The translations under genes and the position numbers were made by a program. DNA of 64,000 nucleotides, taken from Armatimonadetes bacterium DC (GTDB lineage Bacteria; Armatimonadota; Fimbriimonadia; Fimbriimonadales; GBS-DC). This document shows positions 1 to 56,591 of this stretch, in pieces (position 1 is the first letter of the stretch; the number at the start of each line of letters is the position of its first letter). The notes beneath the pieces were generated by a model, which saw only the letters and a list, made by a program, of their open reading frames with translations, was not told the origin of the DNA and searched no databases. The DNA is taken from NCBI GenBank assembly GCA_001442985.1, contig LDYB01000016.1:248001-312000 (forward strand), in the 5' to 3' direction.

Positions 1-996
1 GACCCGACCGACTTCAGCGGGCTGCCCGTGTTGCACGACGGACGCATGCGCTTCGCCCCACCCGACTGGCTGCAGGTGTTCGAGCAGACGGGACGGGGCA
101 TCCTGTTTTTAGACGAGTTGACCACCGCCCCACCCACCGTACAGGCGGCGCTGTTGCGGCTGGTGCTGGAGCGCAAGGTGGGGGCGCATAGCCTGCCGCC
201 TGAGGTGCGCATCGCCGCCGCGGCGAACCCCCCAGAGATTGCCGCCGTCGGCTGGGAACTCAGCCCGCCGCTCGCCAACCGCTTCGTGCATATTCAGTGG
301 AACCTCGACGGCGAGCGCTACCGCCAGTCGCTGGAGAGCGGCTTCGCCGAGGCGACCCTGCCTGAAACCGACCCCGAACGCCACCGCGCACGAAGCGTCT
401 TCTGGCGCAACCTCGTGGCAGGCTTCCTCAAGCACAACCCCGCGCTGGCGCACACCGAACCCGCCGAAGACGAATACGCCTTCGCCTCGCCGCGCAGCTG
501 GGACTTCGCGATTGCGCTGATGGCGACCTGCGAGCTGCACGGCTATGCGCCCACGCCCGGTCAGCCCGCCCCGCGCGATGCGCAGCCGTTCATCAACCTT
601 GTCAAGGGTGCGGTGGGTTCGGGGGCGGCGACGAGTTTTCTGGATTATCTGCGCACGCTCCGAATCCCCGACCCCGAAGCGGTGCTGGATGGTAAGGCGC
701 AGGTAGACGCCAGCCTGCGCGAGGACGAGTTGTTTGTGTTGTTCAACACGATGAAGAGCCTGCTGACGGGGATGGAGGGGAGCGACCCGCGCTTGAGTGC
801 GCGTACCCAGCGCTTCCTGCAGGGCGCGCAGGTGGTCGCCAACGCTCGCAAGGGCGACAGTATCTACACCTGTTTTCGCGAGCTAATCAAGAGCGGCTGG
901 CTTCAGCAACGCGCGGCAGCAGACCAAAAAATCGCCCCCATCCTGCGCGAACTGAGCCGCTACTTTGAAGAACTGACGCAGATACTGGAGGCGTGA
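1..996 (+). CDS. MoxR-family AAA+ ATPase (5' partial)
   Basis: The reading frame is open from the first base, so the N-terminus with Walker A lies outside the window; 331 residues are visible. Visible residues 33-40 (GILFLDEL, D38/E39) are a Walker B motif, followed by a sensor-like AAANPPE stretch and SPPLANRF with the presumed arginine finger. This pattern is typical of MoxR-like AAA+ ATPases, which remodel VWA-domain partners. The C-terminal ~180 residues are helical and not recognisable. The stop codon lies 5 nt before the ATG of the HEAT gene, and the operon continues to a VWA/metallopeptidase gene at 3195, the usual MoxR partner. The last codons (YFEELTQILEA) reappear fused to another gene at 2332-2368. 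Family is confident; the substrate is unknown. Confidence 0.85.
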   Translation, partial: DPTDFSGLPVLHDGRMRFAPPDWLQVFEQTGRGILFLDELTTAPPTVQAALLRLVLERKVGAHSLPPEVRIAAAANPPEIAAVGWELSPPLANRFVHIQWNLDGERYRQSLESGFAEATLPETDPERHRARSVFWRNLVAGFLKHNPALAHTEPAEDEYAFASPRSWDFAIALMATCELHGYAPTPGQPAPRDAQPFINLVKGAVGSGAATSFLDYLRTLRIPDPEAVLDGKAQVDASLREDELFVLFNTMKSLLTGMEGSDPRLSARTQRFLQGAQVVANARKGDSIYTCFRELIKSGWLQQRAAADQKIAPILRELSRYFEELTQILEA

Positions 997-1001
997 TACC
1001 G

Positions 1002-2111
1002 ATGGAATGGCAAGGCGTGGAGATTGAGCTGCAGGTTCCCTGTGCGGAGGGCAAGAAGCATCCCGTGCGCCTGCGGATTACAGGCTGGGGCGAGTATGAG
1101 GTGATTCACAACCCCTGTGTGGAGTTGCTGGGCGAAGCGCTGGCGCGGACGGCGCCCTGCACCTACTACCTGCAAAAGCGTGAGTGGTGGAAGCGGGATG
1201 ATGACCTGCGTCGGCGTGTGGTAGAGGCGCTGGCACAGGCGGGTTCGTCCGCCGTGCCCGCACTCATTCAGGCACTGGGGGATGATAGTGAGAGTGTTCG
1301 TCAAGCGGCGTGCGAAGCGTTGGCGAAGATAGGGGATGCGCGAGCCGTGCCTGCTTTGAGCGTGTGGGCAGCGGTTGGAGACAAGGCAGCCCGGGAAGCG
1401 TTGCAGTCTCTCGGTCAGTCGCCGTTGCCGTTGGAAAAGGCGGTGCGTGCCGTGCTGGCGTCGGGCGACTGGGGTGTGGTGCAGCGGGCGTTAGGGCACG
1501 ATGTAGTGCGCGAGGTGGTAGTGAAGCAGATGGGAGCGCAGGCTGTGCCGTATCTCATTCAGGCACTGAGGGATGAGCATAGTGGTATTCGTGAGGCGGC
1601 GTGTCGGGCGTTGGGGCAGGTAGGTGACGCGCGAGCTGTGCCCGCGCTCGTTCAGGCGTTGGAAGATGGGAATGTGAATATTCGCTACGAGGCGTGTTGG
1701 GTGTTAGGTCAGATAGGGGATGCGCAGGCTGGGCCAGCGCTTGTCGATGCACTGGGGGATATGGAGAAGAGTGTTCGTGCGGCGGCGTGTGTGGCGTTGG
1801 GGAAGATTGGTGACCCGCAAGCCGTGGACCCGCTCATCCAAAAGTTGAGGGATCCAGATTCGCTTGTTCGCCGTGAGGCGTGTGTGGCACTGGGTCGGAT
1901 TGGCGATAAGCGAGCCGTAAATCCGCTCATCCAAAAGCTGGGGGATGCAGATTGGGATGTTCGTCGGGCGGCGTGTGAGGCGTTGGGGCAGATAGGCGAT
2001 GCGCAGGCTGTGCCCGCGCTGGAAAAGGTTGCTGCTCAAGACAGTGATGGCGGGGTACGCGGAGCCGCCCGCCAGGCAATCCGAGAGATTCAGGAGAAGA
2101 ACCGACAATGA
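1002..2111 (+). CDS. HEAT-repeat (PBS lyase type) protein, copy 1
   Basis: A 369-residue protein. Residues 1-65 form a non-repeat N-terminal domain shared with the second copy at 2371; from about residue 66 there are about seven HEAT-like repeats of ~31 residues on the pattern AVPALIQALGD-xxxx-VRxAACxALGxIGD. The scaffold is strongly conserved, while the four or five residues before VR differ in every repeat (DSES, EHSG, GNVN, MEKS, PDSL, ADWD). Such solenoids are protein-binding platforms; no catalytic site is seen. ATG 1002 is chosen because CTGGAGGCG precedes it at Shine-Dalgarno distance and it aligns with the ATG of copy 2; a GTG at 993 is possible. Its stop overlaps the next ATG (ATGA). 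Placed between MoxR and VWA genes, it is probably an adaptor for that machine (inference). Confidence 0.85.
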   Translation: MEWQGVEIELQVPCAEGKKHPVRLRITGWGEYEVIHNPCVELLGEALARTAPCTYYLQKREWWKRDDDLRRRVVEALAQAGSSAVPALIQALGDDSESVRQAACEALAKIGDARAVPALSVWAAVGDKAAREALQSLGQSPLPLEKAVRAVLASGDWGVVQRALGHDVVREVVVKQMGAQAVPYLIQALRDEHSGIREAACRALGQVGDARAVPALVQALEDGNVNIRYEACWVLGQIGDAQAGPALVDALGDMEKSVRAAACVALGKIGDPQAVDPLIQKLRDPDSLVRREACVALGRIGDKRAVNPLIQKLGDADWDVRRAACEALGQIGDAQAVPALEKVAAQDSDGGVRGAARQAIREIQEKNRQ

Positions 2112-2368
2112 GCCACCTGCCGATAGAGGAGTGGGTGCGTGCGGCGCGGGTGTACGCGGCGGAGCAGGCGGCGTGGTTTGCGCCTGCGCTCTATGCCGCG
2201 CCATTCCGCCTGAGCGAGCAGCTGCCTGCCCCCGCCGCTATCGACAGGCACGGGCGCGTCTACTTCAACCCGCACTGGGTCGCCCGAATCTATGAGCAGG
2301 TGGGGCAGGACCGGCAGGCGCAGTGCCAGCACTTTGAAGAGCTGACGCGCATACTGGAGGCGCGATAG
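2108..2368 (+). pseudogene. Chimeric fragment: VWA/metallopeptidase N-terminus fused to MoxR C-terminus
   Basis: This 86-codon frame starts with 67 residues essentially identical to the N-terminus of the protein at 3195, then switches after GQ to a short linker and HFEELTRILEA, which matches the last residues of the MoxR protein ending at 996. It is exactly what a tandem duplication with end points in moxR and the VWA gene would leave at the junction. It lacks the HExxH site and VWA domain of the parent. It keeps an ATGA overlap with the HEAT gene upstream and lies 2 nt before the next ATG, so it may still be translated and couple translation through the operon. A function is unlikely but not excluded. 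Confidence 0.85.
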
Positions 2369-2370
2369 CG

Positions 2371-3198
2371 ATGGAATGGCAAGGCGTGGAGATTGAGCTG
2401 CAAGTACCCTGTGCGAAGGGCAAGAAGCACCCCGTGCGCCTGCGCTTCACAGGCTGGGGCGAGTATGAGGTGATTTACAACCCCTGCGTGGAACTGTTGG
2501 GCGAGGCGCTGGCGCGGATGGCTCCGTGCAGCCATTACCTGCAGGAGCGCAAGTGGTGGACTGGAGATAGCAGCCTGAGAAAGCGTGTGGTGGATGCGCT
2601 TTCGCAGGCAGGTTCGCCCGCTGTGCCCGCGCTCATTCAGGCGTTGGGGGATAATTGGGAAGGTGTTCGTTCGGCGGCGTGTGGGGCGTTGGGGGCAATC
2701 GGCGACCCGCACGCCGTGCCCGCGCTGAGTGTATGGGCGGCGGCAGGCGAGCAGGCGGCTCAAGATGCGCTCCAGTCCCTCGGTCAGCCGCCGATGGAGC
2801 TGCAGGAGGCAATCACGCACTTGCTGCACGCAGGCGACTGGTGCGTGGTGCAGCGGGCGTTGTGGCATAATGCAGTGTGTGAGGCGGTGGCGCAGGTGGG
2901 CGCGCCTGCCGTGCCCGCGCTCATTCAGGCGTTGGGGGATAATTGGGCAGTTGTTCGTTCGGCGGCGTGTGCGGCGTTGGGGGTAATCGGCGACCTGCAC
3001 GCCGTGCCCGCGCTCATTCAGGCATTGGGGGATGATTGGGGCAGTGTTCGTTCGGCGGCGTGTGCGGCGTTGGGGGTAATCGGCGACCCGCACGCCGTGC
3101 CCGCGCTGGAAAAGGTTGCTGCTCAAGACAGTGATGGCGGGGTACGCGGAGCCGCCCGCCAGGCAATCCGAGAGATTCAGGAGAAGAACCGACAATGA
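2371..3198 (+). CDS. HEAT-repeat (PBS lyase type) protein, copy 2
   Basis: A 275-residue paralogue of the protein at 1002, with the same N-terminal domain (starts MEWQGVEIEL) and the same C-terminal 30 residues, but about three fewer HEAT units; the length difference of 94 residues is close to three 31-residue repeats. The repeats near residues 185-250 are almost identical in DNA with a 93-bp period (for example 2954 versus 3047), so the array expands or contracts by slippage or unequal recombination. Variable residues before VR are NWEG, NWAV and DWGS. The start has TGGAGGCG upstream, and the stop overlaps the VWA gene by ATGA. Presumed binding scaffold of the MoxR-VWA module; partner unknown. 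Confidence 0.85.
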   Translation: MEWQGVEIELQVPCAKGKKHPVRLRFTGWGEYEVIYNPCVELLGEALARMAPCSHYLQERKWWTGDSSLRKRVVDALSQAGSPAVPALIQALGDNWEGVRSAACGALGAIGDPHAVPALSVWAAAGEQAAQDALQSLGQPPMELQEAITHLLHAGDWCVVQRALWHNAVCEAVAQVGAPAVPALIQALGDNWAVVRSAACAALGVIGDLHAVPALIQALGDDWGSVRSAACAALGVIGDPHAVPALEKVAAQDSDGGVRGAARQAIREIQEKNRQ

Positions 3199-4658
3199 GC
3201 CACCTGCCGATAGAGGAGTGGGTGCGTGCGGCGCGGGTGTACGCGGCGGAGCAGGCGGCGTGGTTTGCGCCCGCGCTCTATGCCGCGCCATTCCGCCTGA
3301 GCGAGCAGCTGCCTGCCCCCGCCGCTATCGACAGGCACGGGCGCGTCTACTTCAACCCGCACTGGGTCGCCCGAATCTATGAGCAGGTGGGGCAGAATCG
3401 GCAACGGCTGGTGCAACAGCTGGGGTTCCTCTGGTATCACGAGGTGATGCACTGGCTGCGCCAGCACGAGGCGCGCGCGGCGGACATCCGCGCCGTGCCT
3501 GAGGTGTGGAACCTTGCCTGCGATATGGAGATTAACGACTACCTGCCCGATGGACTGGCGTATCCCGAGTTTGGCGGGGCGTTTCGGGCGGTGTTTCCGC
3601 GCGATTACGGGCTGGAGGAGGGGCATACGGCGGAGTGGTACTATCGGCGGTTGCTGGAGCAGCAGGAACAACAGAGACAACAGCGGGGCGAAAGCGACGC
3701 AGGTGAGCAGGAGCAAGAGCAGCAGGCAGGGGGTGGAAGTGCAGGCGAGCAAGAGAAACAGGAGCAAGCAGGCGGGGGCAGCTCTGGCGAGCAAGAGAAA
3801 GATGAGCAGCAGGCAGGTGGAGTCGGCGCAGGCGAACAGGATATGGAGTGCGGAAGCTCCGCTTCCGCAGTCCAAAGGGGGGGCTGGGACGAGGGCAGCG
3901 GGGTTCACGGGCAGCCGCGCCCGTGGGAGTTGCCCGCCGAGAGCGAAGAAGCGCCCGCCCTCTCCGAGTTTGACCGCCAGGCGCTCCGCGAAACCGTCGC
4001 GCACAACATCATAGAACACCAGAAAAATCGGGGAACGCTGCCTGCAGGGCTGGTGCGCTGGGCAGAAGAAGTCCTCAAGCCCAAAGTCAACTGGCGCGAG
4101 CAGCTCAAGCGGGTGGTGCGCGGCGCGATTAGCGAAGGGTTTGGGCAGCGGCTGGACTACAGCCTGCGCCGCCCGAACCGACGCCTGAGTGTCTATCACC
4201 CGCTGTACCTGCCCTCGCTGCAGGGCGAGTACCGCCCGCGCGTGGCGTGCGTGGTGGATACTTCGGGGTCTATCAGCGACCGCGAGTTGACGCAGGCGCT
4301 GGCGGAGGTGCGGGCGGTGCTGGAGCAGTTGCGGGTGCCCATCACGATTATCCCGTGCGACGCCGTGCCGTATGAGGCGATACAGGTGATGCGCGGCTCC
4401 GATTGGCTGAAGGTACGCGAAGGGTTGCGCGGAGGCGGGGGTACGGATATGGTCGCGGGGTTGCAGGCGGCGCTGGAGTTGACGCCGAAGCCCGACGCGG
4501 TGATTGTGCTGACGGATGGGTACACACCGTTTCCGACGGAGCGTCCGAAGGATACGGTGGTGATATGGGCGCTGTGGCAGTATGGGGACGCCGAGCCGCC
4601 GCTTCCGCCGATGCCCCCGTGGCAAAAGCGCGATGTGGTGGTGATTCCAATTCAGTAG
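3195..4658 (+). CDS. Putative metallopeptidase with C-terminal VWA-like domain (DUF2201/COG3864 type)
   Basis: A 487-residue protein with two domains. The N-terminal part carries HEVMH at residues 82-86, a zinc-metallopeptidase HExxH motif followed by a further conserved acidic/His segment. The C-terminal part has a VWA MIDAS, DTSGS at 355-359, and a later GGGGTD. Residues ~155-235 are a Gln/Glu/Gly/Ser-rich linker with internal repeats, and a palindromic DNA element is embedded in it at 3845-3873. This matches the metallopeptidase-VWA family that works with MoxR ATPases, and the ATPase is in the same operon. The ATG overlaps the HEAT stop codon (ATGA). Substrate and pathway are unknown; proposed roles in protein maturation are inference. 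Confidence 0.85.
   Translation: MSHLPIEEWVRAARVYAAEQAAWFAPALYAAPFRLSEQLPAPAAIDRHGRVYFNPHWVARIYEQVGQNRQRLVQQLGFLWYHEVMHWLRQHEARAADIRAVPEVWNLACDMEINDYLPDGLAYPEFGGAFRAVFPRDYGLEEGHTAEWYYRRLLEQQEQQRQQRGESDAGEQEQEQQAGGGSAGEQEKQEQAGGGSSGEQEKDEQQAGGVGAGEQDMECGSSASAVQRGGWDEGSGVHGQPRPWELPAESEEAPALSEFDRQALRETVAHNIIEHQKNRGTLPAGLVRWAEEVLKPKVNWREQLKRVVRGAISEGFGQRLDYSLRRPNRRLSVYHPLYLPSLQGEYRPRVACVVDTSGSISDRELTQALAEVRAVLEQLRVPITIIPCDAVPYEAIQVMRGSDWLKVREGLRGGGGTDMVAGLQAALELTPKPDAVIVLTDGYTPFPTERPKDTVVIWALWQYGDAEPPLPPMPPWQKRDVVVIPIQ
3845..3873. repeat. Palindromic element inside the VWA gene linker
   Basis: GGAGTGCGGAAGC followed by TCC and GCTTCCGCAGTCC forms a 13-bp stem with one mismatch. The same core (AGTGCGGAAGC ... 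GCTTCCGCACT) occurs between convergent genes at 57814-57840. Here it is translated in frame as Ala/Ser-rich linker sequence. Confidence 0.7.
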
Positions 4659-4705
4659 CCCGTGCATCCCTGCGCTTGATTGGGCAGGATGCCCACGCTA
4701 CGAAG

Positions 4706-4751
4706 AGCCAGCGCAGGCTGGCTTTGTTTGTTAGGAACGGCTTTAGCCGTC
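4706..4751. repeat. REP-like twin-hairpin repeat, copy 1
   Basis: AGCCAGC-n4-GCTGGCT forms a first hairpin, then TTTGTTTGTTAGGA, then ACGGCT-TT-AGCCGT forms a second. Two nearly identical copies occur at 4792 and 10363. Copy 1 differs from the others by a few bases. Confidence 0.8.
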
Positions 4752-4787: not shown

Positions 4788-4849
4788 AAATAGCCAGCGG
4801 AGGCTGGCTTTGTTTATTAGGAACGGCTTTAGCCGTCGCTCTTTCGGGG
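4788..4849. repeat. REP-like twin-hairpin repeat, copy 2
   Basis: Same two-hairpin design as 4706-4751, extended by GCTCTTTCGGGG. It is identical over ~60 bp to the copy at 10363-10423, which lies 5.6 kb away. Confidence 0.85.
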
Positions 4850-56279: not shown

Positions 56280-56579
56280 TTATCCACAGGCAATTAACCG
56301 GAGTCCCAATATACATGTTGAGTCCCTGTTAAATTAAGGGGCTGTGGACATGTGGATAACTCGGCTTTTTCGAACGGCGGGTAGGTATAATTTGGGTCGG
56401 GCTGAGGGGCGATTTTGAGTTCAAAATTGCGGTTTTCGGAGCTGACTCATGAGTTATTTAGCCTCGTGAAACAAATTGTGGATAACCTGTGGATAGCCTG
56501 TGGATAACTGTGGATAACTCGGGGGCGAATTGTGGATAACTGGGGGTTATCCACAGGGTTATCCACAGAGTTATCCACA
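56280..56579. other. Probable replication origin (oriC): cluster of nine perfect DnaA boxes
   Basis: The consensus DnaA box TTATCCACA occurs forward at 56280, 56547, 56559 and 56571, and reversed (TGTGGATAA) at 56351, 56477, 56499, 56509 and 56531. One more copy with a single mismatch is at 56488. The last eight sites pack into ~100 bp, with reversed boxes on the left and forward boxes on the right. AT-richer DNA lies at 56290-56340 and 56411-56475, suitable for unwinding, and a GG-TATAAT box is at 56386-56391. The region has no gene from 56209 to 56608, and flanking transcription is divergent. dnaA is not in the window. Confidence 0.8.
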
Positions 56580-56591
56580 GGGGGTGTGGGG

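What the first reader, a model, noticed from the sequence alone, without database searches (positions are those of the whole stretch)
2650..3110. 93-bp near-identical HEAT minisatellite with variable surface positions
In copy 2 successive repeats are almost identical in DNA (period 93 bp), yet the four residues before VR differ (NWEG, NWAV, DWGS). Copy 1 has six other versions. This looks like a naturally diversifying repeat scaffold, as in engineered alphaRep libraries built on the same fold.
Basis: partly seen in the sequence, partly recalled or inferred. Interest (0 to 1): 0.6.

Follow-up and report, generated by a model that had tools for sequence, protein, structure and literature searches.

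The report
Naturally selected alphaRep-like HEAT repeat array
A hot-spring bacterium carries a gene built from near-identical 31-residue HEAT repeats whose outward-facing helix residues have been pushed to differ by selection, on the same positions that protein engineers randomise to make binders; the process is a known one, and the gene's partners suggest that it helps a chaperone-like machine choose its targets.

Summary
The repeats are real. Copy 2 (2371-3198) has three canonical 93-bp HEAT repeats, 91-94% identical in DNA, with NWEG, NWAV and DWGS before VR. Only two are in direct tandem; the first lies beyond a 195-bp degenerate linker. Copy 1 has six older repeats. Sequence and fold match engineered alphaRep best. 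Omega on the six positions is about 2.3 against 0.3 elsewhere (0 of 100 null simulations reach the observed ratio); at helix A surface residues it is 0.4. A same-family genome has one gene with 17 such repeats in the same operon, so array length changes greatly. A near-identical contig shows one silent and no replacement change in copy 2, so nothing points to current hypervariation; no reverse transcriptase was found. The operon is MoxR ATPase - HEAT - HEAT - DUF2201/VWA. Best reading: adaptor of a MoxR/VWA machine, its binding face remodelled by repeat duplication plus positive selection. The evolutionary mode is known from other repeat proteins; the function is inferred.

The parts
1..996 (+). 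MoxR-like AAA+ ATPase, C-terminal 331 aa (the gene begins upstream of the window)
   Evidence: Whole gene matches AAA_5 above its cutoff, AAA_3 below it; 92% identical to the G004 orthologue
1002..2111 (+). HEAT copy 1, 369 aa: N-terminal domain, 1 repeat, degenerate linker, 5 repeats, C-cap
   Evidence: HEAT_2, HEAT and HEAT_PBS far above cutoffs; repeat listing
1251..1343 (+). copy 1 repeat 1 (DSES)
1542..2006 (+). copy 1 repeats 2-6 (EHSG, GNVN, MEKS, PDSL, ADWD), period 93 bp
2108..2368 (+). scar ORF: start of the VWA gene joined to the last codons of the MoxR gene; junction of the tandem duplication
   Evidence: near-identical to the start of the VWA gene, then MoxR tail letters
2371..3198 (+). 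HEAT copy 2, 275 aa
   Evidence: AlphaFold2 model pLDDT 94.1, pTM 0.87
2371..2592 (+). N-terminal domain of copy 2, three strands and short helices, no library match, conserved C14/H20/C39/C53
2620..2712 (+). copy 2 repeat 1 (NWEG)
2713..2907 (+). degenerate 65-aa helical linker, present once in each window copy and twice in the G004 gene
2908..3000 (+). copy 2 repeat 2 (NWAV)
3001..3093 (+). copy 2 repeat 3 (DWGS)
3094..3195 (+). C-cap, the same 34 aa in copy 1 and copy 2
3195..4658 (+). DUF2201 metallopeptidase-like/VWA protein, 487 aa, with HEVMH (82-86) and DTSGS (355-359)
   Evidence: DUF2201_N 6.4e-30, DUF2201 6.7e-19; motifs

Best explanation
The gene encodes a natural alphaRep-type HEAT solenoid. 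Its 93-bp units are gained and lost by recombination (shown as differences in unit number; mechanism inferred). After duplication, the exposed face of helix B diverges under positive selection while the scaffold is kept (shown statistically), and the finished array is then conserved between close strains (shown for one pair). The gene lies between a MoxR-like AAA+ ATPase gene and a DUF2201/VWA gene, so the protein most likely acts as the client- or partner-binding adaptor of a MoxR/VWA chaperone-like machine: the N-terminal domain and caps anchor it, and the helix B face binds the target (inferred, not shown). The extra window copy arose by a tandem duplication that left a VWA-MoxR scar ORF.
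For: Fold: alphaRep chains are the top sequence matches (best E 2e-70 and 2e-104 to a synthetic alphaRep-type fusion, then named alphaReps) and the top Foldseek and VIA matches; 4jw3 Z 12.2, 1.3 A over 95 residues; 6g4j Z 12.1, 0.9 A over 93. Selection: omega 2.34 at the alphaRep six against 0.32 elsewhere in 17 G004 repeats, p 8e-5; 2.27 against 0.32 in the nine window repeats, p 0.008; 0 of 100 null simulations reach the observed ratio; the same with scaffold-only or star trees. Position control: helix B 14,15 omega 2.73 and 18,22,26 omega 2.64, against helix A 7,8 omega 0.36 and residue 19 omega 0.32 in all 26 repeats. Replication: 4 of 5 other arrays of the phylum have omega above 1 with p below 0.01. 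Turnover: 6 and 3 canonical repeats in the window, 17 in the single G004 gene at the same place; the nearest relative of a repeat lies in the same gene for 21.0 of 26, 7 of 5000 label shuffles reach this. Exchange: copies 1 and 2 are 298 of 300 identical over 2011-2310, and about 63-92% per 60 bp upstream of that where they align. Operon: MoxR-HEAT-VWA in the window and G004.
Against: No target is known and no binding was tested. The near-identical contig shows no replacement change. In array L063 omega at the same positions is 1.04. Five of six copy 1 repeats are closer to a G004 repeat than to each other, so concerted evolution is seen for copy 2 and G004 only. Synonymous identity within the G004 array (0.833) equals that between G004 and copy 2 (0.834), so the G004 repeats are not especially young. 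Codon models assume one tree and no synonymous constraint; several scaffold codons are frozen on codons rare in the window's genes (GTT, TTG), which could lower the silent rate and inflate omega. The HEAT protein is not always with the VWA gene: G002 has HEAT-MoxR without a VWA match on the stretch, and the G004 paralogues L024 and L025 lie beside unrelated genes.
Confidence: 0.55

Rival explanations
1. Neutral drift of surface residues: the scaffold is kept by folding, the helix B face is simply unconstrained, and no binding is under selection.
For: The loop 12-13 fits omega 1 in G004 and in all 26 repeats; most old arrays in the phylum show replacement to silent ratios near or below 1; array L063 omega 1.04.
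Against: Omega 2.3 at the a priori set, p 8e-5, 0 of 100 simulations under omega 1 reach it; helix A surface residues 7,8 are constrained, not free. Silent-site constraint could still mimic part of this.
Confidence: 0.2
2. Arms-race sensor: the array is the recognition part of a MoxR/VWA conflict system like the VMAP ternary systems, diversified by phage or other invaders.
For: vWA-MoxR systems with HEAT or other repeats in the effector position are described as diversifying conflict systems (passages of PMC7159879); positive selection is known in non-self recognition repeats (PMC1805685 abstract and one section). HEAT-containing PADLOC models match along the repeats, which any HEAT array may do.
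Against: No VMAP, nuclease or other effector was recognised beside the operon in the genes scanned; DUF2201 has 0 occurrences in that paper; copy 2 does not vary between the two near-identical contigs.
Confidence: 0.17
3. Programmed hypermutation, such as a diversity-generating retroelement, writes the variable codons.
For: Frozen codons flank highly variable codons within a few bases.
Against: No RVT_1 match in G000 or G004, while 3 of 14 control genomes ring; the own genome's other protein matches to copy 2 are at most 45% identical, so no template copy was seen; no replacement change between near-identical contigs.
Confidence: 0.03
4. Assembly artefact: repeat collapse or chimeras made the copies.
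For: Metagenome assemblies break near this locus: the G008 MoxR and VWA contigs end within 132 and 372 bases of these genes, the latter inside a HEAT array.
Against: A separately named assembly contig (JAIMAN010000110.1) carries the same scar ORF and the same copy 2 array, and a one-contig genome has the long array.
Confidence: 0.05

Closest known systems
alphaRep artificial HEAT-like repeat proteins (PMC3754942; abstract and passages seen)
   Same: 31-residue HEAT-like unit, near-constant scaffold, variable repeat number; the variable residues of helix B map to library positions 18,19,22,26,30 (our 14,15,18,22,26); design taken from a natural subgroup common in thermophiles
   Different: Natural and selected in evolution; library position 23 (our 19) is nearly fixed as Ala; residues 12,13 and 30 also vary; cysteine is kept at scaffold residue 21
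Podospora HET/NWD WD40 repeats (PMC1805685; abstract and one results section seen)
   Same: Near-identical repeats, variable repeat number, a few interface codons with dN/dS above 1
   Different: Beta-propeller of a fungal allorecognition receptor; exchange between gene family members shown there, only partly here
General rapid 'horizontal' divergence of protein repeats followed by conservation (PMC5120217; abstract and passages seen)
   Same: High dN/dS among repeats of one protein against conservation between close species, as here
   Different: Averages over whole repeats; here the selected face is resolved to five helix B positions
MoxR-VWA systems such as RavA-ViaA (PMC3893208; abstract seen)
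   Same: MoxR ATPase with a partner protein; that the partner is a VWA protein encoded in the same operon is recalled
   Different: The VWA protein here is of the DUF2201 type with an HExxH motif, and HEAT genes lie between the two

Membership tests
HEAT / PBS-lyase HEAT repeat superfamily | Profile match over consecutive helical repeats | tested here: met
   HEAT_2 3.2e-65 and 2.2e-34, HEAT_PBS 2.9e-37 and 1.8e-16, above cutoffs
alphaRep-like natural HEAT repeats | 31-aa unit with the alphaRep scaffold sequence | tested here: met
   alphaRep chains are the best PDB sequence matches, aligned without gaps through the canonical repeats
alphaRep-like natural HEAT repeats | Same fold as solved alphaRep | tested here: met
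   Foldseek E 4.4e-07 and VIA Z up to 14.4; 4jw3 1.3 A over 95 residues
alphaRep-like natural HEAT repeats | Variable residues at library positions 18,19,22,23,26,30 | tested here: met
   Five of six vary, with omega above 1 as groups; position 23 (our 19) does not, in line with the small residues reported there
alphaRep-like natural HEAT repeats | Binding through the concave face | not testable with these tools
   No coordinates were available for surface calculation; helix positions only
MoxR-VWA chaperone-like systems | MoxR-like AAA+ gene adjacent to a VWA gene | tested here: met
   AAA_5 above cutoff, AAA_3 below; DUF2201 VWA; same operon, with HEAT genes between; order kept in G004
MoxR-VWA chaperone-like systems | ATPase-dependent maturation of a client complex | not testable with these tools
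   needs experiment
vWA-MoxR-VMAP ternary systems | A VMAP protein in the operon | tested here: inconclusive
   No VMAP named among the neighbours scanned with Pfam; VMAP-specific models were not looked for by name
Diversity-generating retroelement | Reverse transcriptase gene in the genome | tested here: not met
   PF00078: 0 of 2 genomes, 3 of 14 controls ring; G000 is estimated 95% complete
Young tandem repeat array under concerted evolution | Repeats of a gene closer to each other than to those of the orthologue | tested here: inconclusive
   True for copy 2 and G004; 5 of 6 copy 1 repeats are closest to a G004 repeat

The most novel reading that the evidence does not exclude
A bacterial MoxR/VWA machine carries a genetically adjustable recognition arm: an alphaRep-like solenoid whose length and binding face are repeatedly rebuilt by unit duplication and selection, with frozen codons around the variable ones keeping the units recombinable. 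It would be a natural binder library, comparable to fungal WD40 recognition receptors.
Probability: 0.2. Interest if true: 0.65.

Novelty: new member of a known kind. Interest (0 to 1): 0.4.

Why it matters
It shows natural selection acting on the same helix face that engineers chose for alphaRep binders, so the natural arrays of this phylum may be a source of evolved binders and of functional hints for MoxR/VWA systems. The evolutionary mode itself (fast divergence of new repeats, then conservation) is already in print (PMC5120217, PMC1805685).

Tried and rejected
Loop-only variability: residues 12-13 do not exceed omega 1 in G004 or in all 26 repeats. Retroelement mutagenesis: no reverse transcriptase. 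Special silent conservation of the repeats compared with neighbours: same-amino-acid codon identity between copy 2 and G004 is 0.83 in repeats against 0.75 in the N-terminal domain, 0.78 in MoxR and 0.79-0.85 in VWA, so not exceptional overall. Fold of the N-terminal domain: no Foldseek match at E 0.001, best VIA Z 3.2, so no fold was assigned. Strain-level survey: only one near-identical contig was found; it belongs to G008, whose other contigs carry a more divergent version of the locus, so it may be mis-binned. Omega 20.8 for L077 with the alphaRep set is an unstable fit (3.24 with the seven-position set). Papers: MoxR with DUF2201 0 papers; searches for variable HEAT arrays in bacteria listed no direct precedent that I recognised from titles and abstract starts, in an open-access library only.

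Rows left out: the 65-aa linkers, the C-caps and one 28-aa G004 repeat were in no repeat count; two diverged G004 repeats (709, 740) were left out of the 'core' counts but are in the n=17 fits. One search skipped overlapping or duplicate loci and arrays with fewer than 4 recognised repeats, so copy 2 is not in it. The seven-position set was chosen after seeing the data; the alphaRep six come from the library paper, mapped by me through the alignment after I had seen the repeats. The subset fits are 18 tests without correction.

Full report
Where it is. The window is a stretch of a 2.85-Mb genome (G000), estimated 95% complete. One near-identical contig is titled Armatimonadetes bacterium HOT.MAX.079. 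The finding lies in an operon: a MoxR-like AAA+ gene (1-996, cut by the window's edge), HEAT copy 1 (1002-2111), a scar ORF (2108-2368), HEAT copy 2 (2371-3198) and a DUF2201/VWA gene (3195-4658).

The observation. Copy 2 has three canonical 93-bp repeats, at 2620-2712, 2908-3000 and 3001-3093, 91-94% identical in DNA, with NWEG, NWAV and DWGS before VR. The last two are in tandem; the first stands before a degenerate 65-aa linker. The period-93 signal is far beyond chance: 100 of 107 matches, against at most 51 in 100 shuffles. Between repeats 2 and 3 the codon differences are at residues 8 (silent), 12, 14, 15 and 30; between repeats 1 and 2 they are at 1 (silent), 14, 15, 22, 26 and 30. Copy 1 has six older repeats, mean DNA identity 0.665.

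Fold. AlphaFold2 on an alignment of nine relatives gives pLDDT 94.1 and pTM 0.87. In repeats 2 and 3, helix A spans about residues -1 to 8 of the unit, the loop 9-13, and helix B 14-27. The closest solved sequences and folds are alphaRep proteins. The library randomises positions 18, 19, 22, 23, 26 and 30, and the paper says that two such proteins bind each other through concave faces that hold these residues. Through the gapless alignment and the VR motif, I map them to residues 14, 15, 18, 19, 22 and 26 here.

Selection. Replacement differences at these six codons, relative to the overall silent rate, are 1.60-fold in 15 core G004 repeats (bootstrap 1.25-2.14), 1.17 in copy 1 (0.91-1.52) and 4.12 in copy 2 (3.00-8.00, three repeats only). 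Of all 736,281 six-codon sets, 491, 2,205 and 431 reach the observed replacement rate in the three groups. A codon model with the set fixed beforehand gives omega 2.34 against 0.32 for 17 G004 repeats (likelihood ratio 15.6, p 8e-5) and 2.27 against 0.32 for nine window repeats (p 0.008). None of 100 simulations under omega 1 reaches 15.6; the highest is 7.55. Trees from scaffold codons only, or star trees, give omega 2.2-3.2. Split by place, all 26 repeats give 2.73 for 14,15; 2.64 for 18,22,26; 1.42 (not different from 1) for the loop 12,13; 0.36 for helix A 7,8; 0.32 for 19; 2.15 for 30,31. All 26 repeats have different combinations at 14, 15, 18, 22 and 26. Non-repeat neighbours are ordinary: pN/pS is 0.19-0.27 in the N-terminal domain.

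How general. In 291 genomes of the phylum, 30 have an array matching at E 1e-40. Of the 30 rows measured, the seven with mean repeat identity of 0.72 or more (six loci) all have a replacement to silent ratio above 1 at the variable positions (1.10-3.14); the 23 others lie between 0.75 and 1.81, fifteen of them below 1. Of five further arrays fitted, four have omega above 1 with p below 0.01 and one (L063) has 1.04. So the pattern is a property of young arrays of this kind, not special to this locus.

Turnover and exchange. The G004 genome (same family, one contig) has MoxR, one 800-aa HEAT gene with 17 canonical repeats and two linkers, and the VWA gene in the same order. G008 has a HEAT array end before its VWA gene, cut by the contig edge. 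G002 has a short HEAT gene directly before MoxR. HEAT N-terminal domains were found in 8 of 121 genomes, the VWA gene in 7 of 121 and the MoxR gene in 5 of 121, at the thresholds used. Nearest neighbours of repeats lie in the same gene for 21.0 of 26 (shuffled mean 12.3; 7 of 5000 reach it), but copy 1 departs from this. Copies 1 and 2 are almost identical over about 300 bp at their 3' ends and into the VWA start, and much less so upstream; the scar ORF joins a VWA start to a MoxR end, the mark of a tandem duplication of the HEAT segment.

Against ongoing hypervariation. The HOT.MAX.079 contig differs from the window at 13 of 2852 positions: one silent change in HEAT copy 2, two silent in VWA, six in the scar ORF (three of them replacements), four after the genes. 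The paired pattern, fast divergence among repeats and conservation between close strains, is what PMC5120217 describes as general. No reverse transcriptase was found in G000 or G004.

Function. [quoted passage not shown] A HEAT solenoid encoded between a MoxR and a VWA gene, with a selected face, is most simply their client or partner adaptor; this is inference. A conflict role like the vWA-MoxR-VMAP systems (passages of PMC7159879) is not excluded.

Verdict. It is a new member of a known kind.

Noticed in passing
window 2371-2592 and 1002-1223: A ~75-aa N-terminal domain without Pfam or NCBIfam match and without a clear PDB fold match; C14, H20, C39 and C53 are kept in 9 of 9 close relatives, less so in two distant ones: possible metal site.
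   Followed up: partly
window 2108-2368: Scar ORF of VWA start plus MoxR end; between the two near-identical contigs it holds 6 of the 13 differences, suggesting gene conversion or loss of constraint.
   Followed up: partly
window 3698-3835: 42-bp repeat coding a Gln/Glu/Gly-rich linker inside the VWA protein; longer in G004.
   Followed up: no
window 4703-4751 and 4789-4837: A 49-base direct repeat, 94% alike, after the VWA gene; the HOT.MAX.079 contig leaves the window's sequence shortly after.
   Followed up: no
window 56477-56582: Clustered TGTGGATAACC and GGGTTATCCACA repeats; they resemble DnaA boxes (recalled), perhaps a replication origin.
   Followed up: no
codons 10-24 of the repeats, window 2620-3093: Scaffold codons around the variable ones are frozen on codons rare in the window's genes (GTT 24 of 24 Val at residue 16, TTG at Leu24 in 23 of 26), while silent sites at 25-30 vary.
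   Followed up: partly
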